Shown here piece after piece: positions 2,060 to 14,737 of a stretch of DNA of 17,585 nt (its first letter is position 1; the number at the start of each line of letters is the position of its first letter). This DNA is from a bacterium. Its GTDB lineage: Bacteria; KSB1; UBA2214. Location of the stretch: NCBI GenBank assembly GCA_029560815.1, contig JAKQKF010000123.1, positions 1-17,585 of the forward strand, read 5' to 3'. The translations under genes and the position numbers were made by a program. The notes beneath the pieces are model-generated. The model ran no database searches and was not told where the DNA came from. It saw only the letters and a program-made list of their open reading frames with translations.

Positions 2060-2854
2060 ATGGCTGAAGTCACTATTCAAGATTTGCTGCTGGCCGGAAG
2101 CCATTTCGGTCATCTGACCCGCCGCTGGAATCCCAAGATGAAGAAATTCATCTTTATGGAACGCAACGGCATCCACATCATCGATCTGAAAAAGACCATT
2201 GTCTGCCTGAACGAGGCCCGCGACGCGATCCGCAAGATCGTCGCCGAGGGCGGCTCGGTGCTGATGGTCGGCACCAAAAAACAGGCCAAGGACATCATCA
2301 AGCTTGAAGCCGACCGCTGCGGCATGCCCTATGTCACCGAGCGCTGGCTGGGCGGCACCCTGACCAACTTCGTCACCGTCAAGAAGAGCGTCAAACGCCT
2401 GAAGAATCTCGAGAAAAAGGCGACTGACGGCACCTACGACAAGGTGACCAAGAAAGAGATCCTCACCATCGAGCGCGAAAAGGAAAAGCTGGATAAGGTG
2501 CTTGGCGGCATCCGCGACATGAATCATCTGCCCACCGCCCTTTTCATCGTCGATTCCAAAAAGGAGTCGATCGCGGTCATGGAGGCCAAGCGGCTGAACA
2601 TCACCACCTTCGCCCTGAACGACACCAACGCGGATCCCGATTTCGTCGATTATCCGGTCCCGTGCAACGATGATGCTTTCAAGTCGATCAGCCTGCTCAC
2701 CCGCGCCATCGCCGAAGCCATCCTCGAGGGCAAGTCCGGACGCATCGATATGCAGATGGCCTCCGAGAGCGAAGGCAGCGAGGCGGAACTCGCCTACAAG
2801 AAAGAGCACGCAGAGAGTGCCGAGAGCTATTCCAGTGACGCCGTAAAGAAATGA
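2060..2854 (+). CDS. rpsB: 30S ribosomal protein S2
   Basis: S2 binds late to the small-subunit head and helps S1 to bind. The 264-aa product shows the diagnostic AGSHFGHLTRRWNPKMKKFI near the start, the strand GGSVLMVGTKKQA, the signature ERWLGGTLTNF around residue 95, and the NHLPTALFIVDSKKE and DTNADPDFVDYPVPCNDDA segments typical of S2. The C-terminus is extended by about 30 residues rich in Glu and Ser, past the IAEAILEGK end of the core; such tails vary between phyla. ATG at 2060 has CAGGAG upstream. It pairs with tsf 18 nt downstream, the usual rpsB-tsf operon. Confidence 0.97.
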   Translation: MAEVTIQDLLLAGSHFGHLTRRWNPKMKKFIFMERNGIHIIDLKKTIVCLNEARDAIRKIVAEGGSVLMVGTKKQAKDIIKLEADRCGMPYVTERWLGGTLTNFVTVKKSVKRLKNLEKKATDGTYDKVTKKEILTIEREKEKLDKVLGGIRDMNHLPTALFIVDSKKESIAVMEAKRLNITTFALNDTNADPDFVDYPVPCNDDAFKSISLLTRAIAEAILEGKSGRIDMQMASESEGSEAELAYKKEHAESAESYSSDAVKK

Positions 2855-2872
2855 TCAGTCAGGAGTAAGATA

Positions 2873-3466
2873 ATGTCCATATCCGCTTCATTAGTGAATG
2901 ACCTGCGCAACAAGACCGGCGCGGGTATGATGGATTGCAAAAAGGCCCTTGAGCAGACCGGCGGCGATATTGAGAAAGCCATCGATTATCTGCGCAAGCG
3001 CGGAGTGCAGCAGGCCGAGAAAAAGGTCGGCCGCAGCGCCAATCAGGGCATCATCCAGTCCTATATTCATCCGGGCAGCCGGCTGGGCGTGCTCGTCGAG
3101 ATCAACTGCGAAACCGATTTTGTCGCGCGCACGAATGATTTCCAGGAGTTCGCCAAGGATGTCGCCATGCAGATCGCAGCGGCCAATCCCCTTGTGGTCG
3201 ATCGCAGCGAGCTGGACCAGGAGAAGATCAACAAGGAGCTCGAGATCTACCGGGACCAGGCGCGCGAGCAGGGCAAACCCGAGGCCATCCTTGAAAAGAT
3301 CGCCCAGGGCAAGCTGGAGAAGTATTACCAGGAGGTCTGCCTGCTGGAACAGAGCTTTGTCAAGGATCCGAACAAGACCATCCGCGACCTGCTCAACGAA
3401 AAGATCGCCAAACTGGGCGAAAACATGATCCTGCGACGGTTCGTCCGGTTTCAGCTGGGCGAATAG
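2873..3466 (+). CDS. tsf: Elongation factor Ts, short form
   Basis: EF-Ts is the cytoplasmic nucleotide-exchange factor that reloads EF-Tu with GTP. The N-terminal UBA-like domain (about residues 1-50) has LRNKTGAGMMDCKKAL. The core carries the EF-Tu-contacting motif INCETDFVART near residue 80, which inserts at the EF-Tu magnesium site, and then LLEQSFVKDPNKTIRDLL. At 197 aa this is the short class with a single core subdomain, as in Thermus, rather than the 280-aa E. coli class. The frame is intact and the C-terminus matches the short class, so this is not a truncation. ATG 2873 follows CAGGAG. An intrinsic terminator begins 10 nt after the stop. Confidence 0.96.
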   Translation: MSISASLVNDLRNKTGAGMMDCKKALEQTGGDIEKAIDYLRKRGVQQAEKKVGRSANQGIIQSYIHPGSRLGVLVEINCETDFVARTNDFQEFAKDVAMQIAAANPLVVDRSELDQEKINKELEIYRDQAREQGKPEAILEKIAQGKLEKYYQEVCLLEQSFVKDPNKTIRDLLNEKIAKLGENMILRRFVRFQLGE

Positions 3467-3476
3467 AAAGTGGTTG

Positions 3477-3507
3477 AAGAGCGAAGTCGAGGCTTCGCTC
3501 TTTTTTT
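3477..3507 (+). terminator. Intrinsic terminator after tsf
   Basis: A perfect 10-bp stem, aagagcgaag (3477-3486) with cttcgctctt (3493-3502), has a 6-nt loop and is followed by an uninterrupted T-run to 3507. It lies between tsf and pyrH, ending only 23 nt before the pyrH start codon. Confidence 0.88.
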
Positions 3508-3530
3508 AGAGTCCTGAAGGAGGGTGACGC

Positions 3531-4262
3531 ATGAGCGATCCGGGCAAATCCGTCTTCCGCCGCGTACTGCTCAAGCTGAGCGGAGAAGCCCTCATGGGCG
3601 ACAGCAACCGTCTGGGCATCGATCCCCAGACCGTAGACCAGATCTGCCGCGAGGTGGCCGAGGTTGCGCGCATGGGGGTGGAGATTGGCATCATCATCGG
3701 CGGCGGCAATATCTTCCGCGGACTCTCCGCCAGCGCGCGCGGCATGGATCGCGTCACCGGCGACTATATGGGGATGCTGGCCACGGTGATCAACGCTCTG
3801 GCCCTGCAGGACTATCTGGAACGCAACGGCGCGGAGACGCGGGTGATGACGGCCATCAAGATGGAGCAGATCGCCGAGCCCTTCATCCGGCGCCGTGCGA
3901 TGACCCATCTCGCCCACGGCAAGATCGTCATTTTCGGGGCCGGCACCGGCAATCCCTATTTTACCACCGATACAGCGGCCGCCCTGCGCGCCATCGAGAT
4001 CGGCGCCGACGCCATCCTCAAGGGGACCAAGGTCGACGGGGTCTATGACAAGGATCCGGTCACCCATGCCGACGCCGTCAAATATGATCAATTGTCTTAT
4101 ATGGATGTGATCCGCGGCAGGCTCAAGGTGATGGACACCACGGCTGTGACTCTCTGTATGGAGAACGATCTGCCTATTCAGGTGTTCAATCTCAAGGAGC
4201 CCGGAAATCTGCTGCGTGTGATCCTGGGTGAATCCATTGGAACCAAAGTAACAGGTGAGTAG
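3531..4262 (+). CDS. pyrH: Uridylate kinase (UMP kinase)
   Basis: This cytoplasmic enzyme phosphorylates UMP to UDP with ATP; bacterial PyrH belongs to the amino-acid-kinase superfamily and is usually hexameric and GTP/UTP-regulated. The 243-aa product shows the N-terminal [13 protein letters not shown] phosphate-binding loop, [30 protein letters not shown], the [17 protein letters not shown] loop, and the [15 protein letters not shown] nucleotide-binding segment. The C-terminal part contains [23 protein letters not shown] 3531 has a strong GGAGG site. It follows the tsf terminator directly and overlaps in organisation with frr, which starts 3 nt after its stop, so pyrH and frr are translationally coupled. 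Confidence 0.97.
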
Positions 4263-5710: not shown

Positions 5711-6139
5711 TCAGTCCTGGTAGATGGAGAGCCTGGCGGCTGCGCTGCCGTTGAGGATGAAAGTGACAGTGCAGCCGGCCATGATGGGGAAGGGATTGGG
5801 CACAATTTTGCCCAGTTCGTTGGTATGCCAGATTTCGTTATAGTAATAGTAGGATGATTCAGCCTCGTTTTCCTTGCCCCCCTCCACCGCGGTGACATAA
5901 TCCTGGTCCTGAAAATCCCTGACTTCAAGCACGAAATGGTATTTCCCTGGCGGCACATAGCGGTTTTGCAGATCGCGGCCGTTCCAGAAATAGACATAGC
6001 GGCCCATGGGCGCGTCGTAAAAGAGCGCCTCATGGACCAGCTTTTTGTTCTTCTCCTCCGAGAGGGGATTCTTGCAGCCCGCTGTCAGGAGCACAGCGCA
6101 GAGGAGGAGGAGAAGAGGGATGGTGGATGTGCGGGTCAT
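5711..6139 (-). CDS. Small lipoprotein with FlgD-like Ig-fold motifs
   Basis: This 142-aa protein starts with a signal peptide and lipobox (LLLLCAVLLTAGC, lipid Cys at about residue 22), so it should be a membrane-anchored lipoprotein. The mature part contains YVYFWNGRDLQNRYVPPGKY and, near the C-terminus, VPNPF...LSIYQD. Both look like halves of the FlgD-like Ig domain found in sorting domains, but in swapped order. I do not recognise a characterised family and no enzymatic residues stand out. ATG at 6139 was chosen over a start further upstream because the hydrophobic signal begins there; it is 20 nt past the S9 peptidase stop, so it is the last gene of that operon. The ribosome site is weak, which suggests coupling to the gene before it. 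Confidence 0.72.
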   Translation of the reverse strand: MTRTSTIPLLLLLCAVLLTAGCKNPLSEEKNKKLVHEALFYDAPMGRYVYFWNGRDLQNRYVPPGKYHFVLEVRDFQDQDYVTAVEGGKENEAESSYYYYNEIWHTNELGKIVPNPFPIMAGCTVTFILNGSAAARLSIYQD

Positions 6140-6159
6140 GGCTTTGAGCCCAGAGAAAT

Positions 6160-8211
6160 TCAGTTCTGCGAACTCCCGGTCCAGCGGCCGATCCAGCCGT
6201 GCACCTCTTGCCACCAGAGGCGCGCATTCTGCGGTTTGAGGACGAAGTGGGTCTCGTCCGGATAGAGCAGCAGGCGGGAGGGGACGCCCATGCGCTGCAG
6301 GGCGGTGAACAGTTGCAGTCCCTGAGTATAAGGCACGCGGTAGTCCTTCTCGCCGTGGATGACCAGGGTCGGGGTCCGGAATTTCCGGAAATTATCGACA
6401 TAGGATGAAACAGACCATTTCCTGAAAAGTTCCGGTTTTTGGTAGGGCACCCCGCCGAACTCCCATTCGGGGAACCAGAGCTCTTCGGTGGCGCCGTACA
6501 TGCTGATCTGATCGAAAACGCCGGCGTGGCTGACCAGGGCTTTGAAGCGGCTGGTATGGGTGGCGATCCAGTTGACCATAAAGCCGCCGTAGCTGCCTCC
6601 TGCCGCGGCCATGCGCTCCCCGTCGATGAAGGGACAGGTTTTGAGCAGATAGTCGATGCCGGCCATGAGATCCTTGTAGGGTCCGCCGCCCCAATCCCTG
6701 CTCACCGCATCGGTCCAGGCCTGGCCGTAGCCGGTCGAGCCGCGGAAATTGACAAAAACCGCCACATAGCCGGGCGCGGCGAAGAGGGCCGGATTCCAGC
6801 GGTAGTGAAAGTCGTCTTCAAAAGCGCCCTGCGGGCCGCCATGGATCAGATAGATCAGCGGATATTTTTGGGCGGGATCGAAAAAGGGCGGCTTGACGAG
6901 CATGCCGTGGACCTTTTTCCCGTCAAAGCTGGTGAACCAGAACTCCTCGGCGGGATTGAGGGCCAGCTGGTCGAGCAGGGGCTGATTGACGGAGGTGAGC
7001 TGCTCCACCTTCCCGCTGGCGAGGTCGAGGCTGTGAATCTCGTCCGGCGAGGACGCCGACTGCTGTTTGAACCAGAGGGTCCGGCCGTCCGGGGAGATGG
7101 TGATGGCGCTGTTGACATGCTGATGCAGAATCTCCGTCACAGTCGCGGCTGCCGCATCGGCGCGGAAGATGCAGTTGCGGGCCTGATGGTTGGCGGTGAG
7201 GTAGAGGCTTTTGCTGTCCGGGGCCCAGATCACTTCGCCGATCTTGAGATCGAATGCACCGGTCAGATTGCGGCTCCGGCCGCTGGCGCGGTCGAAGAGC
7301 ATCAGCTCTTCCTGGTCGGCCTCGAAGCCGGGGCGGCTCATCGCCTTGTAGGCGATCCAGCGGCCGTCGGGCGAATAGAGGGGATTGTTGTCGACCGCCT
7401 TGTTGGCTGAGGTTATGCAGCGCGGTTCGCCGTCCGCCAGGGAGAGGAGGAAGAGGTCGTTATTGGTCTGGGTTGCGGGCATGGGGTCGATATTGCGCAC
7501 AAAGGCGACCTCGCTCCCGTCGGGGGAGATGGCGAAATCGCGCGTCCCGCCGAGATCGAGGGGGGGCGTGTCATATTCGCCCGGAGTGAGGTCGCGCAGG
7601 CTGCCGCCGTCGGTGTCGCAGAGGAAGAGATGGGTGCGCATCCCTTCACGATAGTGGTTGAAGTAGCGGAAGAAGAGCTGGTCGCTGGTGCGGGCTTTGA
7701 TCGGGCTCTCGTCGCGTTTTTCGGCGCGGGCGGCGCTCTCCGCCAGGGTCGGCGCATCGGCATAGACCGTGGCGGTGAAAAGGAGGTGTTTGCCGTCGGA
7801 GGACCAGAGATAGTCCTCGATATCGACCGGCAGCGAGGTGATGGCACTCGCCTCGCCGCCGGTGAGGGGCAGGCGGTAGAGCTGGTTTGATCCGCCGCGG
7901 CTGGAGAGGAAGCTCAGGGCGGAGCCGTCAGGGAGCCACTGCGGGGCGCCGTCGTACTGGGGGTGGGAGGTGAGCCGGCGCGGTGTGCCGCCCGCGGCGG
8001 GGATGATCCAGAGGTCGGAGTTGCCGCTGTTTTTCTCCATATCATAGCAGGTCTGGTTAAAGGCGATCCAGCGGCCGTCGGGGGAGAGGGCCAAACTGCC
8101 GATTCGTTTCATCGCCCAGAGGTCGTCTGCGGTCATCGCGCGCCGGTCGGCGGCCATGAGCGGGAGGGCGAGAAGGGTGGAGAGCAGCACTAAAAGGATG
8201 ATTTTTTTCAT
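6160..8211 (-). CDS. S9 family serine peptidase (prolyl-oligopeptidase-like), exported
   Basis: This 683-aa serine peptidase belongs to the acylaminoacyl-peptidase/DPP-IV-like branch of S9. It has a cleavable signal peptide (MKKIILLVLLSTLLALPLMA). An N-terminal beta-propeller runs from about residue 30 to 410, with repeated blade motifs such as LSPDGRWIAF, SPDGSEVAF, YSPDGRWIAY and APDSKSLYL. A C-terminal alpha/beta hydrolase domain covers about 430-680. The catalytic triad is visible: Ser540 in GGSYGG, Asp623 in GEKDYRVPY and His655 in DETHF; the oxyanion-region HGGP is also present. The family cleaves short peptides, so a periplasmic role in degrading peptides or processing exported proteins is likely. 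GGAG lies just before ATG 8211. It is the middle gene of a three-gene unit, 24 nt after the Ig-like lipoprotein. Confidence 0.93.
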   Translation of the reverse strand: MKKIILLVLLSTLLALPLMAADRRAMTADDLWAMKRIGSLALSPDGRWIAFNQTCYDMEKNSGNSDLWIIPAAGGTPRRLTSHPQYDGAPQWLPDGSALSFLSSRGGSNQLYRLPLTGGEASAITSLPVDIEDYLWSSDGKHLLFTATVYADAPTLAESAARAEKRDESPIKARTSDQLFFRYFNHYREGMRTHLFLCDTDGGSLRDLTPGEYDTPPLDLGGTRDFAISPDGSEVAFVRNIDPMPATQTNNDLFLLSLADGEPRCITSANKAVDNNPLYSPDGRWIAYKAMSRPGFEADQEELMLFDRASGRSRNLTGAFDLKIGEVIWAPDSKSLYLTANHQARNCIFRADAAAATVTEILHQHVNSAITISPDGRTLWFKQQSASSPDEIHSLDLASGKVEQLTSVNQPLLDQLALNPAEEFWFTSFDGKKVHGMLVKPPFFDPAQKYPLIYLIHGGPQGAFEDDFHYRWNPALFAAPGYVAVFVNFRGSTGYGQAWTDAVSRDWGGGPYKDLMAGIDYLLKTCPFIDGERMAAAGGSYGGFMVNWIATHTSRFKALVSHAGVFDQISMYGATEELWFPEWEFGGVPYQKPELFRKWSVSSYVDNFRKFRTPTLVIHGEKDYRVPYTQGLQLFTALQRMGVPSRLLLYPDETHFVLKPQNARLWWQEVHGWIGRWTGSSQN

Positions 8212-11263: not shown

Positions 11264-11330
11264 AAATCATACCTTGTGATGGCTGCTTTCTGTATATTGT
11301 GTTGAAAATCAAGACCTAAGGTATGATTTT
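11264..11330 (+). promoter_or_regulatory. Inverted repeats burying the start codon of the first dockerin gene
   Basis: AAATCATACCTT (11264-11275) is the exact reverse complement of AAGGTATGATTT (11318-11329), which includes the ATG start at 11323; G-T pairs extend it to 14 bp. The same 3' arm can instead pair locally, AAAATCA (11305-11311) with TGATTTT (11324-11330). A -10-like TATATT lies between the arms at 11293-11298, so whether the long pairing forms in RNA depends on the real transcription start. Confidence 0.5.
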
Positions 11331-12351
11331 GATCAGAGTGAAAAGAAGCGGGGATACCGGGCCGAGGCCTTTTGCTTTTCTGTTCTTTGTCGTCGTGGCG
11401 GTCTGGATGGCCGGCGCGCCCGGCGCGCTGCCGCAGAGTGCGACCCTTTCCTGGCAGCCGGTCACCGAGGATACCAGCGGCCATGCAGAGCTGCCGCCGG
11501 TCTATTACAATATCTACTGCGATACCATACCGGCTTTCCGTCCCGATTCGGCCAGTTTCCTCGCCGCCACCCTGAAGACCAGCTACCTGCATACCGATGC
11601 GCGGCTGGGCGATCCCAACCGGCATCTCTATTACCAGGTACGGGCGGTCGATTTGTGGGGAAATGAATCGGCGCTCAGCGATACAGTCGGTGAGACGGGC
11701 TATCTTCTGGTCCAGGTGCGCGCCTTTCTGCAGGCGCCCTATGACGCGGCGGGCGATTCCATGCGGACGAATTTGCAGCGGCAGGGGCTCCTGCCGCTCG
11801 CATCGCCCTACAGCGTCTCCCCGCGCGCTGCCGCGGTCATGCCCCCGGAAGCAGTGGACTGGGTGCTCCTGCAGCTGCGCGACCCCGCCACGGCCGTCAT
11901 CGCCGGCGAGGAGTCCTTTCTTATGGACAGGGAGGGCTATCTCACCGAGCTGGACGGCCGCAACCGGGTACTGGGTTTCACCGGCTGTGCGCCCGGCCAA
12001 TACCAGCTGGTCCTGAACCACCGCAACCATGTGGCGGTGATGTCGCGCAACACCTACGAGTTCACCGGGGCGCCGCCCGTGCTGCATGATTTCAGCGCCG
12101 ACAGCGCCTTCTGCGAGGGCAGCGGCGCCGTCTGCGAGGTGGAACCGGGGGTGTGGGGACTCTGGAGCGGAGACATCAACCAGGATCGTCAGGTCTCCAG
12201 CCTCGATTTCATCTTCTGGCAGAGCGCGGCCAGGGAGGGCAGGAGCGGCTATCTTGCCGAGGATCTCAATTTCGACGGCCTGATCACCACCGCTGATTAC
12301 GTGCTTTGGTACAGGGCCCACCGCCGCGGCGTCGGTTCTTACGTGCCCTGA
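11323..12351 (+). CDS. Secreted FN3 and dockerin-like repeat protein
   Basis: This 342-aa exported protein is not a known enzyme. A signal peptide covers about residues 1-38 (hydrophobic FAFLFFVVVAVWMAG). A fibronectin type III-like domain follows (about 38-122, ATLSWQPV...YYQVRAVDLWGNES). Then comes a domain of about 120 residues (130-255) with RAFLQAPY, VDWVLLQLR (Val178) and HRNH (His233). A C-terminal dockerin-like pair of calcium loops ends it: DINQDRQVSSLD (284-295) and DLNFDGLITTAD (314-325); the chain ends in VP. The 130-342 part is homologous to the next gene. The start is uncertain: ATG 11323 has AAGG only 1 nt upstream, while the in-frame TTG at 11329 has it at 7 nt. It heads a three-gene cluster. 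Confidence 0.82.
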   Translation: MILIRVKRSGDTGPRPFAFLFFVVVAVWMAGAPGALPQSATLSWQPVTEDTSGHAELPPVYYNIYCDTIPAFRPDSASFLAATLKTSYLHTDARLGDPNRHLYYQVRAVDLWGNESALSDTVGETGYLLVQVRAFLQAPYDAAGDSMRTNLQRQGLLPLASPYSVSPRAAAVMPPEAVDWVLLQLRDPATAVIAGEESFLMDREGYLTELDGRNRVLGFTGCAPGQYQLVLNHRNHVAVMSRNTYEFTGAPPVLHDFSADSAFCEGSGAVCEVEPGVWGLWSGDINQDRQVSSLDFIFWQSAAREGRSGYLAEDLNFDGLITTADYVLWYRAHRRGVGSYVP

Positions 12352-12364
12352 TCGCTTTTGTTGT

Positions 12365-12392
12365 TTGAAACTGTCAATTATTCGTGTATATT
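12365..12392 (+). promoter_or_regulatory. Promoter of the second dockerin-protein gene
   Basis: TTGAAA (12365-12370) and TATATT (12387-12392) are 16 bases apart, in a short AT-rich gap 32 nt before ATG 12425. The 10-mer TGTATATTGT (12385-12394) around the -10 box also occurs at 11291-11300 before the first gene of the cluster. Confidence 0.55.
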
Positions 12393-12424
12393 GTAAGCGA
12401 ACCCTAAAAGGGGAAGTGGAAGAA

Positions 12425-13618
12425 ATGATGAAAAAATTGCATCTTTTGCTGGGCCTGTCACTCCTCCTGCTCGGATTTTCGGCTTCCACAGTGCTGGCCG
12501 ATGCCTCCGAATTCCGCCTCGTTGTGTCGAGCAACACGGGCGCGGTCAGCGGGCGTTTCGCCGTCGATCTGGAGATCAAGGCTTCATCGAACCGGACGCT
12601 GAACTCGCTGACGGTGGATGTGCCCTACGGCCCCGAGCTCGCTTCGGTCGCCACGCCGGGAGAGAACTGGTTCTCAGGCAGCGCCAACTATGAAACTTCA
12701 GTGACCTCGATCAGCCTTCCCGGCACCTACTACCGCGTGCTGGTGACCGGCAACGATATCGGCAAGACCAGCGCAGGTGTGCCCGCCGGTTTTACGGTGA
12801 CGACCAACTGGCAGCGGGTGGTCACCCTGGTCTGGAGCATCGCCACGCTGAGCAACAGCTACAATGTCGACCTTGCGACCTACACCGACTGCGCCGCCTA
12901 TTTCGACAACCTCGCCAACAATCCCCTGGCGGATCTGACGGAATGGGACAGCGGCACGATCAATTTCGCCACCGTCAAGCTGGCGGCCAGGGCTTTTCTG
13001 CAGGGGCCTTACAACACCACCAGCCACAGTATGAAGACCGATCTCTATACGGCTGCGCTGCTTCCCCCGACCTCGGTCTATACCTACGATCCGCGCACTG
13101 TCGCCGCCGTCCCCGCTTCGGTCGACTGGGTTATGCTGCAGCTGCGCAGCTCGGTCACGGGTCCCCCGATCTACTCGAAAAGCCTCTTCCTGCGCAGTGA
13201 CGGGCAGGTGGTGGATGAGGACGGCACGGAGAATTTCGACATCGCCACCCTCGAGGGGGAAAAGAGCTATTATGTGGTGCTGAGCCACCGCAACCACCTG
13301 ACCACCATGAGCTCGGCGCCGATCCCGCTGTCGGGAGGCGCCTATACCAGCTATGATTTCACAACCGCCCAGAACAAGGCTTACGGCACCAATCCGATGA
13401 AGGCGATGACCGATGGCGCCTATGCCTTCAAGGCCGGCGACGGCAATGGAGACGGCGGTGTTGATGCGCTGGATCTCAATGCCATCTGGCGGCCCAGTAA
13501 CGGCACCACCTGGAGCTATGCCAAATATGCGGATTTCAACCTTGACGGCGGTATCGATGCCATCGATGCCAACGCCTACTGGCGCCCCAACAACGGCAGC
13601 GCCACCCAGGTACCCTAA
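12425..13618 (+). CDS. Secreted cohesin-like and dockerin-like protein
   Basis: This 397-aa exported protein has a signal peptide (KKLHLLLGLSLLLLGFSA, cleavage near Ala25). The N-terminal beta domain (about 27-178) starts FRLVVSSNTGAVSGRFAVDL and resembles, in pattern, the N-terminal domain of the next gene; both look cohesin-like, but this is a pattern call. Next is the domain shared with the preceding gene (184-315; RAFLQGPY, VDWVMLQLR at Val233, HRNH at His288). Two well-formed dockerin/EF-hand loops follow, DGNGDGGVDALD (339-350) and DFNLDGGIDAID (370-381), each with a WRP(S/N)NG tail, and the chain ends in VP. Two adjacent ATG codons (12425 and 12428) are possible; an upstream in-frame TTG at 12365 coincides with the -35 box and is rejected. 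The next gene starts 6-18 nt after the stop. Confidence 0.82.
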   Translation: MMKKLHLLLGLSLLLLGFSASTVLADASEFRLVVSSNTGAVSGRFAVDLEIKASSNRTLNSLTVDVPYGPELASVATPGENWFSGSANYETSVTSISLPGTYYRVLVTGNDIGKTSAGVPAGFTVTTNWQRVVTLVWSIATLSNSYNVDLATYTDCAAYFDNLANNPLADLTEWDSGTINFATVKLAARAFLQGPYNTTSHSMKTDLYTAALLPPTSVYTYDPRTVAAVPASVDWVMLQLRSSVTGPPIYSKSLFLRSDGQVVDEDGTENFDIATLEGEKSYYVVLSHRNHLTTMSSAPIPLSGGAYTSYDFTTAQNKAYGTNPMKAMTDGAYAFKAGDGNGDGGVDALDLNAIWRPSNGTTWSYAKYADFNLDGGIDAIDANAYWRPNNGSATQVP

Positions 13619-13636
13619 TCGCAGATGAGGATGAAG

Positions 13637-14737
13637 ATGAAAAAAACAATCTACGCAACGTTGATCCTGCTGCTGGTCCTGAGCGCAAACCTCATGGCCG
13701 CCTATAATCTGCAGTTCGTTGTTGTGCGCAATGACTATATCAACAGCGGCTACTTTGACGTCAAGGTGCAGATCGCCAGCAGCAGCGCTACCATGACGGT
13801 AGGTACGTCCAATCTGGTTTTTACCTACAATACAAGTGCTATAAATCCACAGCCGCTAAACTTGACAACGCATGCTTTCAGCGGCGGGAATTATAATGTC
13901 ATGATTTTAACAGAGCCTTTCGCCGGACGGCTCTCCCTTAACATCGACCTGGCCTCCCTGAACAACGGGACGGTTGTCGGGACCACCTGGATGGATGTGG
14001 CGACGGTACGCTTCACCATCATCGACCAGACGCTGAATTCGGGGCTGGAATGGCGTTCGATTACTCCCAACAGGACCAACCTCTTTTTGCATGACAACCT
14101 GACCGAAGTACCCAGCGGCGCCCTGAGCCCTCTCGATACCACCCTGCCGGTGGAACTCAGTGCTTTCTCGGCGGTCAACGTCAACGGCGTGGTCAGACTC
14201 TCCTGGACCACCCAGAGCGAAATGAATTCCCTCGGTTTTTATGTCAACCGCCGGGAAGGGACGACGGGCGATTTTGAGCGGATCAGCGGACTGATCGAAG
14301 GGGCGGGCAACTCGGCCGCGCCGAGGAATTATCTATTTGAGGATGAACGCCTCGAAAAAGGCCGCACCTATTCCTACATGCTCGAGGACAAGGATATCAA
14401 CGGCCGGGTGAGCTGGCACGGTCCCATCAGCGTGACCGTCGAAAGCGTGCAGCTTCCGGAGGCCTTTTACGTGGAGCAGAATTACCCCAATCCCTTCAAC
14501 CCCACGACTACGATTGAGTATGGTCTGCCCGAAGCGGCCCATGTGCGCATCCAGATCTTTAATATGCGCGGCGAGCTGGTTCGCACCCTGGTCGACGGCA
14601 TGCAGCAGGCCGGGAATCTGACCCGGCTCTGGGACGGCCTCAACGACAGCGGCTCGATTGTCCCGAGCGGAGTCTACTTCTGCCGGGTGCAGAGCGGCTT
14701 TGAGCACAGGATGATCAAGATGGTCTTTGCCAAATAA
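13637..14737 (+). CDS. Surface protein with cohesin-like domain and FlgD-like C-terminal sorting domain
   Basis: This 366-aa exported protein has a signal peptide (MKKTIYATLILLLVLSANLMA). The cohesin-like beta domain (about 22-150) has YFDVKVQIASSSATMTVG and LVFTYNTSAI. An FN3-like domain follows (about 170-270; LPVELSAF, VVRLSWTTQSEMNSLGFYV). The C-terminal about 90 residues form the FlgD-like domain, YPNPFNPTTTIEYGLPEAA from Tyr283 through VPSGVYFCRVQSG to the end, the type known as a type IX secretion sorting signal in the FCB group. Three in-frame ATGs exist (13625, 13631, 13637); only 13637 has GAGG at 6-nt spacing. It has no promoter of its own, so it is transcribed with the preceding gene, and it ends at a strong terminator. 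Confidence 0.85.
   Translation: MKKTIYATLILLLVLSANLMAAYNLQFVVVRNDYINSGYFDVKVQIASSSATMTVGTSNLVFTYNTSAINPQPLNLTTHAFSGGNYNVMILTEPFAGRLSLNIDLASLNNGTVVGTTWMDVATVRFTIIDQTLNSGLEWRSITPNRTNLFLHDNLTEVPSGALSPLDTTLPVELSAFSAVNVNGVVRLSWTTQSEMNSLGFYVNRREGTTGDFERISGLIEGAGNSAAPRNYLFEDERLEKGRTYSYMLEDKDINGRVSWHGPISVTVESVQLPEAFYVEQNYPNPFNPTTTIEYGLPEAAHVRIQIFNMRGELVRTLVDGMQQAGNLTRLWDGLNDSGSIVPSGVYFCRVQSGFEHRMIKMVFAK

What the first reader, a model, noticed from the sequence alone, without database searches (positions are those of the whole stretch)
11323..14737. Three-gene mosaic that may form a small cohesin-dockerin-type surface assembly
Seen: gene 1 (11323) and gene 2 (12425) share a 120-residue domain plus paired calcium loops; genes 2 and 3 share an N-terminal beta domain pattern (SG.F.V...I.SS ... 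V.T.W..V.T); genes 1 and 3 carry FN3-like domains; only gene 3 has the FlgD-like C-terminal sorting domain. Known: dockerin loops bind cohesin domains in cellulosomes, and FlgD-like CTDs send proteins through type IX secretion to the surface. Inferred: gene 3 is the surface-held partner and genes 1 and 2 dock onto it through their C-terminal loops. No catalytic module is present, so this would be a matrix or scaffold rather than a cellulosome.
Basis: partly seen in the sequence, partly recalled or inferred. Interest (0 to 1): 0.72.

Follow-up and report, generated by a model that had tools for sequence, protein, structure and literature searches.

The report
Three-link cohesin-dockerin surface chain
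Three neighbouring genes of an uncultured bacterium appear to make a plug-and-socket chain (cap, adaptor, surface anchor) that holds proteins on the cell surface, and its relatives swap plug and matching socket together.

The parts
11323..12351 (+). gene 1, 342 aa: Sec-like N-terminus, FN3-like region, CEN, dockerin of the constant 'G1' dialect (proposed cap; one of many G1-dockerin clients)
11695..12135 (+). gene 1 CEN domain (residues 125-271)
   Evidence: profile match
12148..12348 (+). gene 1 dockerin-like double loop (residues 276-342)
   Evidence: DOC profile; Pfam Dockerin_1 18.4 bits, under cut-off
12425..13618 (+). gene 2, 397 aa: Sec-like N-terminus, cohesin-fold domain COHg2, CEN, type I-dialect dockerin (proposed adaptor)
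12500..12964 (+). gene 2 cohesin-fold domain (residues 26-180)
12965..13414 (+). gene 2 CEN domain (residues 181-330)
13415..13615 (+). gene 2 dockerin, two similar calcium-loop halves, ends at the stop codon
   Evidence: Pfam 31.3 bits; profile A1 also finds solved dockerin chains 2vn5_B and 5lxv_B (E 0.0051 and 0.022)
13625..14737 (+). gene 3, 370 aa: Sec-like N-terminus, cohesin-fold type I receptor, FN3-like, T9SS type A sorting domain (proposed anchor)
13697..14152 (+). gene 3 cohesin-fold domain (residues 25-176)
14153..14452 (+). gene 3 FN3-like domain (residues 177-276)
14453..14734 (+). gene 3 FlgD-like / Por secretion C-terminal sorting domain
   Evidence: PF13860 40.9 bits, PF18962 33.3 bits; TIGR04183 34.2 bits over cut-off 23

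Best explanation
The trio encodes a three-link cohesin-dockerin chain. Gene 3 crosses the outer membrane and stays on the surface through T9SS (inferred from its sorting domain and from PorU/SprA in relatives). It presents a cohesin-fold socket. Gene 2 is an adaptor: its C-terminal dockerin plugs into the gene 3 socket, and its own N-terminal cohesin (COHg2) is a second, different socket. Gene 1, and many unlinked proteins with the same 'G1' dockerin, plug into COHg2. Dockerin and matching socket change together in evolution while much of the rest of the chain stays. Shown here: domain content, predicted cohesin folds, gene order, dialect-receptor association. Inferred: binding, surface location, order of the chain, role in displaying extracellular enzymes.
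For: Cohesin fold of both N-terminal domains. Trio in order in 5 of 5 loci (the L005 contig ends inside gene 3) and in G054. Co-switching: L004 v L052 are 91/92% identical in gene 1 CEN/DOC, 79/81% in gene 2 cohesin/CEN and 89% in gene 3 CTD, but only 43% in gene 2 dockerin, 20% in gene 3 N-domain and 42% in gene 3 FN3; the neighbours S66 and M24 are 92% and 94% identical. Across 12 trios, partial r of gene 2 dockerin v gene 3 N-domain is 0.85, against 0.16 and 0.20 for the control pairs g2COH-g3COH and g2DOC-g3CTD. I wrote 20 genome-dialect expectations before searching the receptors (4 of the 20 were source genomes of their type); 20 of 20 were found. With the scoring rule, held-out genomes: 13 of 13 using only tails fetched before the receptor searches (shuffle mean 3.07, maximum 9, 0 of 20000); 16 of 16 with all tails (0 of 100000). 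Partial Mantel r 0.942 given rpsB distance, 0 of 20000 permutations (22 sources, reference ones included). G1 dialect v COHg2: 12 of 14 dialect genomes. In G017 a G1-dockerin gene lies directly upstream of a COHg2-FN3-CTD gene with no adaptor between. Both dockerin halves resemble each other within a protein (mean 0.41-0.67) more than halves of other dialects (0.27-0.33), as in dual-binding dockerins (passages of PMC12484212). Of 12 adaptors with a readable tail (window included; G054's is interrupted), 7 tails were assigned, none to the type of the adaptor's own socket; 5 were unassigned.
Against: No binding was tested and no complex could be co-folded; the dockerin tail of the gene 2 model has pLDDT under 40. 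Gene 2 dockerin and gene 3 cohesin lie next to each other in the DNA, so one recombination can swap both: the neighbour pairs g2CEN-g3COH (0.61) and g3COH-g3FN3 (0.43) also correlate. Unlinked matches exist but are few: G077, G078, G039, plus extra type II dockerins on other contigs in G018, G021, G050 (coordinates). Of 137 tails, 44 were not assigned, and the margin of 0.08 was chosen after seeing the tails. With a looser margin G013 (type III) and G021 (G1) become dialect genomes without receptor. Exceptions at the set margin: G015 and G055 have the G1 dialect without COHg2; G053 has COHg2 without a G1 tail among those read. Of 28 receptor-genome pairs, 5 have no assigned dialect; counting three weak or partial hits that I left out (G050 and G002 type III, G049 type I) it is 8 of 31. 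G007 has a partial type II receptor and no CEN. Fold of receptor types II, III and V was not predicted, and type V has no profile similarity to type I. Pfam's cohesin model misses these domains. The window's own genome is not held.
Confidence: 0.76

Rival explanations
1. Both gene 1 and gene 2 dock directly and side by side on gene 3.
For: Both end in dockerin-like loops and only gene 3 is anchored.
Against: Gene 1's dialect stays of one kind while gene 3's receptor switches between at least four types in close relatives. G1 dialect goes with COHg2 across genomes, 12 of 14. In G017 the COHg2 domain itself carries the T9SS anchor beside a G1-dockerin gene.
Confidence: 0.08
2. Dockerin and receptor do not interact; the gene 2 3' end and gene 3 5' end are co-replaced only because they are adjacent on the DNA.
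For: The domains are separated only by a short intergenic stretch and a signal peptide. Neighbouring CEN and FN3 also partly co-switch (g2CEN-g3COH 0.61, g3COH-g3FN3 0.43). At most matched loci the two genes are neighbours.
Against: G077 and G078 (type I) and G039 (type III) have dockerin and matching receptor on different contigs; G018, G021 and G050 have further type II dockerins on other contigs. G1 dockerins are mostly dispersed yet go with COHg2. Dockerin-receptor correlation (0.85) exceeds that of the pairs g2CEN-g3COH and g3COH-g3FN3.
Confidence: 0.1
3. The CEN plus double loop is itself a C-terminal sorting or retention signal, not a dockerin for these receptors.
For: It is the last thing in 137 of 145 CEN ORFs whose stop is in view (8 of 145, all G020, end at CEN), and it never co-occurs with a T9SS CTD: 0 of 149 CEN ORFs (4 of them run off the contig end) and 0 of 86 CTD ORFs.
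Against: A sorting signal read by one machine would not be expected to come in several dialects within a genome that track separate receptor genes. Dockerins are commonly terminal (recalled).
Confidence: 0.06

Closest known systems
Ca. Stygibacter (Cloacimonadota) cellulosome-like complex (PMC8542988; abstract, passages and section 7 seen)
   Same: Dockerin-ended proteases and glycosidases; cohesin scaffoldin held on the surface by a conserved C-terminal domain (its authors cite a T9SS review there); not cellulose-centred.
   Different: There one 3,755-residue scaffoldin with tandem cohesins and CBMs. Here mostly single-cohesin anchors of about 370 aa, a separate adaptor, an unannotated CEN domain before the dockerins, and several dialects that switch between close relatives.
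Adaptor and anchoring scaffoldins of clostridial and ruminococcal cellulosomes (PMC12484212, passages; PMC4959524, search listing only)
   Same: Hierarchy enzyme dockerin - adaptor - anchor, and dual-binding dockerins with two similar halves. Gene 2's order cohesin-domain-dockerin resembles the cohesin-X-dockerin end of CipA (composition recalled); 3kcp and 4fl4 are its top Foldseek hits.
   Different: Anchoring there is by SLH or sortase; here by a T9SS sorting domain. The adaptor here has a single cohesin.
Planctosome of freshwater Planctomycetes (known to me here only from its mention in PMC8542988 section 7)
   Same: Non-canonical cellulosome-like structure for polypeptide degradation.
   Different: Not compared here.

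Membership tests
Cohesin domains (genes 2 and 3 N-termini) | cohesin fold (nine-stranded, recalled; strands not counted here) | tested here: met
Cohesin domains (genes 2 and 3 N-termini) | dockerin binding | not testable with these tools
   indirect only: dialect-receptor association
Cohesin domains (genes 2 and 3 N-termini) | match to Pfam Cohesin PF00963 (diagnostic, not defining) | tested here: not met
   no PF00963 hit in the trio at E<=1, nor in 8 relatives with COHg2 or type I, II, III, V receptors
Type I dockerins | duplicated calcium-loop F-hand, over Pfam cut-off | tested here: met
   gene 2 31.3 bits v cut-off 22.9
Type I dockerins | the same for gene 1 | tested here: inconclusive
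   18.4 bits, under cut-off; DOC profile built from gene 2 homologues matches
T9SS type A substrates | C-terminal sorting domain | tested here: met
   gene 3: PF18962 33.3, TIGR04183 34.2 bits, both over cut-off
T9SS type A substrates | secretion machinery in the genome | tested here: inconclusive
   PorU and SprA over cut-off in 5 of 5 relatives; the window's own genome is not held
Cellulosome | scaffoldin with several cohesins | tested here: not met
   one cohesin each in genes 2 and 3. G050, G052 and G053 have 3xCOHg2+FN3+CTD proteins, but that is elsewhere
Cellulosome | dockerin-bearing enzymes | tested here: met
   in relatives only: 10 of 26 scanned CEN-dockerin proteins hold an enzyme-family domain over Pfam cut-off; none in the trio
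Cellulosome | cellulose or plant-wall degradation as the purpose | not tested
   the 10 enzyme-family proteins are six proteases, and one each amylase, apiosidase-like, esterase-like and RG-lyase-like

The most novel reading that the evidence does not exclude
Piggyback export: most dockerin proteins have Sec-like starts by a crude test (112 of 128 CEN ORFs, v 178 of 454 other ORFs) but none has a T9SS sorting domain (0 of 149 CEN ORFs). They may bind their CTD-bearing cohesin in the periplasm and be carried through the T9SS pore as folded passengers, so that cohesin dialects decide which cargo is exported as well as where it sits.
Probability: 0.15. Interest if true: 0.85.

Novelty: new variant of a known kind. 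Interest (0 to 1): 0.68.

Why it matters
It would give a T9SS-held version of the adaptor-anchor logic of cellulosomes in a poorly known candidate phylum. Its socket domains are missed by Pfam's cohesin model. A natural set of at least five plug-socket dialects, swapped together between close relatives, would be a source of orthogonal protein pairs and makes cohesin-dockerin specificity testable by exchange. It also raises a concrete question: how do dockerin proteins without any T9SS sorting domain cross the outer membrane?

Tried and rejected
Gene 2's tail came out with pLDDT under 40, so its dockerin fold rests on sequence profiles. For gene 3 the best Foldseek E-values go to PorU and multi-FN3 proteins and cohesins start at rank 25; VIA-align puts cohesins first. 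For gene 2 pilins also appear among the Foldseek hits. Profile comparison of receptor types II and V with type I gave no significant match, so their cohesin fold is untested; type III was not compared. VIA-align lists are filled by the cohesin domain, so CEN's fold was barely tested, and CEN as an X-module analogue remains a guess. A type II secretin search found 0 of 10 genomes over cut-off, but 9 of 10 had weaker secretin matches, so no T2SS absence is claimed. PHROGs gave nothing for the trio at E<=0.001. Homopolymer by self-docking of gene 2: not favoured, because none of the 7 assigned adaptor tails has the type of its own socket. Papers: 'dockerin'+'KSB1' 0 papers; 'KSB1'+'type ix secretion' 0 papers. 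Peer et al. 2009 was not held.
Full report
WHAT IS THERE. The window (17,585 bases, genome not held) carries pyrC-rplM-rpsI-rpsB-tsf-pyrH-frr-type housekeeping genes (named from the sequence and recall; not searched one by one), then a methyltransferase, an S9 peptidase, a Big_5 protein, an S66 peptidase, the trio, an M24 peptidase and an msrB/A fusion. The trio is confirmed at the stated coordinates. Gene 1: Sec-like start, FN3-like region, CEN, dockerin-like tail. Gene 2: Sec-like start, beta domain, CEN, dockerin. Gene 3: Sec-like start, beta domain, FN3-like, T9SS sorting domain. Gene 2's dockerin passes Pfam's cut-off; gene 1's does not. CEN is my label; Pfam, NCBIfam and PHROGs show no model that matches it in genes 1 and 2.

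NEIGHBOURHOOD. A scan of the species-genome collection with gene 2's alignment returned 5 loci, two titled 'candidate division KSB1' and three 'bacterium'. Genes 1-2-3 stand in order in 5 of 5 (in L005 the contig ends inside gene 3). The S66 gene precedes in 4 of 5 (the L003 contig starts just before gene 1) and the M24 gene follows in 4 of 5 (L005 ends). G054 has the same block, with gene 2 interrupted by one stop. PorU and SprA pass their cut-offs in 5 of 5 genomes, and Pfam cohesins and dockerins also occur in 5 of 5.

DIALECTS. Lining up 16 trios or pairs (contig pairs c... were joined by equal contig length) showed that the gene 2 dockerin changes type together with the gene 3 N-domain, while the gene 1 dockerin and the gene 2 cohesin keep to one kind. 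L004 and L052 are sisters (S66 92%, M24 94%; gene 1 91/92%, gene 2 cohesin 79%, gene 3 CTD 89%), yet gene 2 dockerin is 43% and gene 3 N-domain 20% identical (FN3 42%). L002 and L003 (rpsB distance 0.044) show the same: g2COH 82%, g3CTD 78%, g2DOC 38%, g3COH 30% (g2CEN 49%). The type II dockerin of contig c17767 is closer to L003's (60%) than to the window's (34%), and so is its receptor (48% v 24%), although its gene 2 cohesin (53% v 68%) and gene 3 CTD (60% v 83%) are closer to the window's. Across 12 trios the partial correlation of g2DOC with g3COH is 0.85; control pairs g2COH-g3COH and g2DOC-g3CTD give 0.16 and 0.20; g2CEN-g3COH gives 0.61 and g3COH-g3FN3 0.43.

PHYLUM-WIDE TEST. Gene 2's profile hits 33 of 82 genomes of the phylum. 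I read 149 CEN ORFs (33 genomes and the window). Of 145 with the stop in view, 137 end 55-74 residues after CEN; 8, all in G020, end at CEN with no dockerin. T9SS sorting domains: 0 of 149. I wrote down by eye which genomes had dialects I, II, III and V (20 pairs, 4 of them source genomes of their type) and then searched the four receptor types: 20 of 20 found. With a fixed scoring rule, 93 of 137 tails were assigned. Of the assigned I/II/III/V genome-dialect pairs, 23 of 23 have the receptor (shuffle mean 5.20, maximum 14, 0 of 100,000). Leaving out all source genomes: 16 of 16 in 27 genomes (mean 3.45, maximum 11, 0 of 100,000). Three of those 16 (G039, G042, and type V of G043) were read only after a receptor hit pointed there; without tails fetched after the receptor searches it is 13 of 13 held-out and 20 of 20 overall, no shuffle of 20,000 as good. 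Species relatedness does not explain it: dialect sharing hardly follows rpsB distance (r -0.10), and the partial Mantel r of dialect with receptor is 0.942 (0 of 20,000; 22 sources including the reference ones). In the other direction the match is looser: of 28 receptor-genome pairs, 5 (type I in G004, G020, G022, G023, G024) have no assigned dialect, and 8 of 31 if weak and partial receptor hits are counted; a motif rule calls four of those five genomes type I, but it misses G052 for type II. The looser margin adds G013 (type III) and G021 (G1) as dialects without receptor. The G1 dialect goes with COHg2 in 12 of 14 dialect genomes (missing in G015 and G055); COHg2 without a G1 tail: G053.

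ORDER OF THE CHAIN. COHg2 occurs on adaptors (COHg2-CEN-dockerin, as in gene 2) and also directly on T9SS anchors: single in G002, G003, G004, G005, G017, G054 and G016 (interrupted), triple in G050, G052 and G053. In G017 a G1-dockerin gene lies directly upstream of a COHg2-FN3-CTD gene with no adaptor. Other adaptors pair a type III socket (G039) or a type I-like socket (G022) with a dockerin that was not assigned to any type. Of 12 readable adaptors, 7 tails are assigned and none has the type of its own socket. Hence the proposal: G1 clients plug into COHg2, the adaptor plugs into the typed receptor, the receptor is held by T9SS. The two halves of a dockerin are alike within a protein (mean identity 0.41-0.67) more than across dialects (0.27-0.33; 92 tails), as expected for dual-binding dockerins (PMC12484212, passages).

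CLIENTS. Of 26 CEN-dockerin proteins scanned, 10 hold an enzyme-family domain over Pfam's cut-off: two papain-like C1 with lectin-like domains, four subtilases, one alpha-amylase, one apiosidase-like hydrolase, one esterase-like, one with a rhamnogalacturonan-lyase C-terminal domain; others are beta-propellers, beta-helices or without match. So the trio is more likely the scaffold end of an enzyme-display system than a bare matrix.

LIMITS. No binding or localisation is shown. The main confounder is physical adjacency of gene 2's dockerin and gene 3's cohesin. It is weakened by matches on different contigs (G077, G078, G039; extra type II dockerins in G018, G021, G050) and by the dispersed G1 dockerins. 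The genomes are drafts without stated completeness in these calls. The assignment margin was set after seeing the tails. Receptor types II, III and V have no predicted fold. How dockerin proteins without a sorting domain leave the cell is open.

NOVELTY. A surface-held cohesin scaffoldin with dockerin enzymes has been proposed for Ca. Stygibacter (PMC8542988, section 7 read). What differs here is the single-cohesin anchor plus adaptor chain, the CEN domain before the dockerins, and the set of dialects that switch together with their receptors. Text searches for KSB1 with dockerin or with type IX secretion returned 0 papers. Hence a new variant of a known kind.

Noticed in passing
L059 (G002) 16388-17800, L061 (G001) 2278-3699: Proteins with Pfam-recognised cohesin, dockerin and FlgD-like tail all in one chain (470 and 473 aa) lie about 12 kb from porU; in G001, G002, G003 and G005 cohesin genes lie within about 8-15 kb of porU, in G004 not. 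A second, CEN-less cohesin-dockerin set of unknown role.
   Followed up: partly
L131 (G052), L130 (G053), L135 (G050): Three-cohesin scaffoldins 3xCOHg2+FN3+CTD of 711-718 aa; Pfam's cohesin model does not see the two that were scanned, L131 and L135.
   Followed up: partly
L222, L223, L224, L148, L210 (G020): Eight CEN proteins end at CEN with no dockerin; G020 thus uses CEN without the plug or has lost it.
   Followed up: no
L195 (G022), L053 (G052), L146 (G042), L115 (G047): Further dockerin dialects (NSDKD..ANLN, FADDITL, T.ADKA-like) without an assigned receptor type; L195 916-2052 carries a weak type I-like N-domain (21 bits) with FN3 and CTD next to four NSDKD tails.
   Followed up: no
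L002 14644-17769, L003 6489-9512: A 1,007-1,041 aa protein between the M24 and msrBA genes, absent at that place in L001 and the window; in L002 it has Calx-beta, F5/8 type C and a T9SS tail.
   Followed up: partly
hits such as P0042, P0061, P0088; P0031, P0032, P0050, P0075: Homologues of gene 2's C-terminal part include proteins named Bacteroidota (P0042) and Ignavibacteria (P0061, P0088), so the module seems to reach beyond this phylum; P0031, P0032, P0050 and P0075 carry a precomputed Pfam cohesin in the same chain.
   Followed up: no
window 5711-6214 (-): 167-aa protein conserved beside the S9 gene; relatives in L004 and L069 show weak similarity to the FlgD/T9SS tail (15-22 bits).
   Followed up: no
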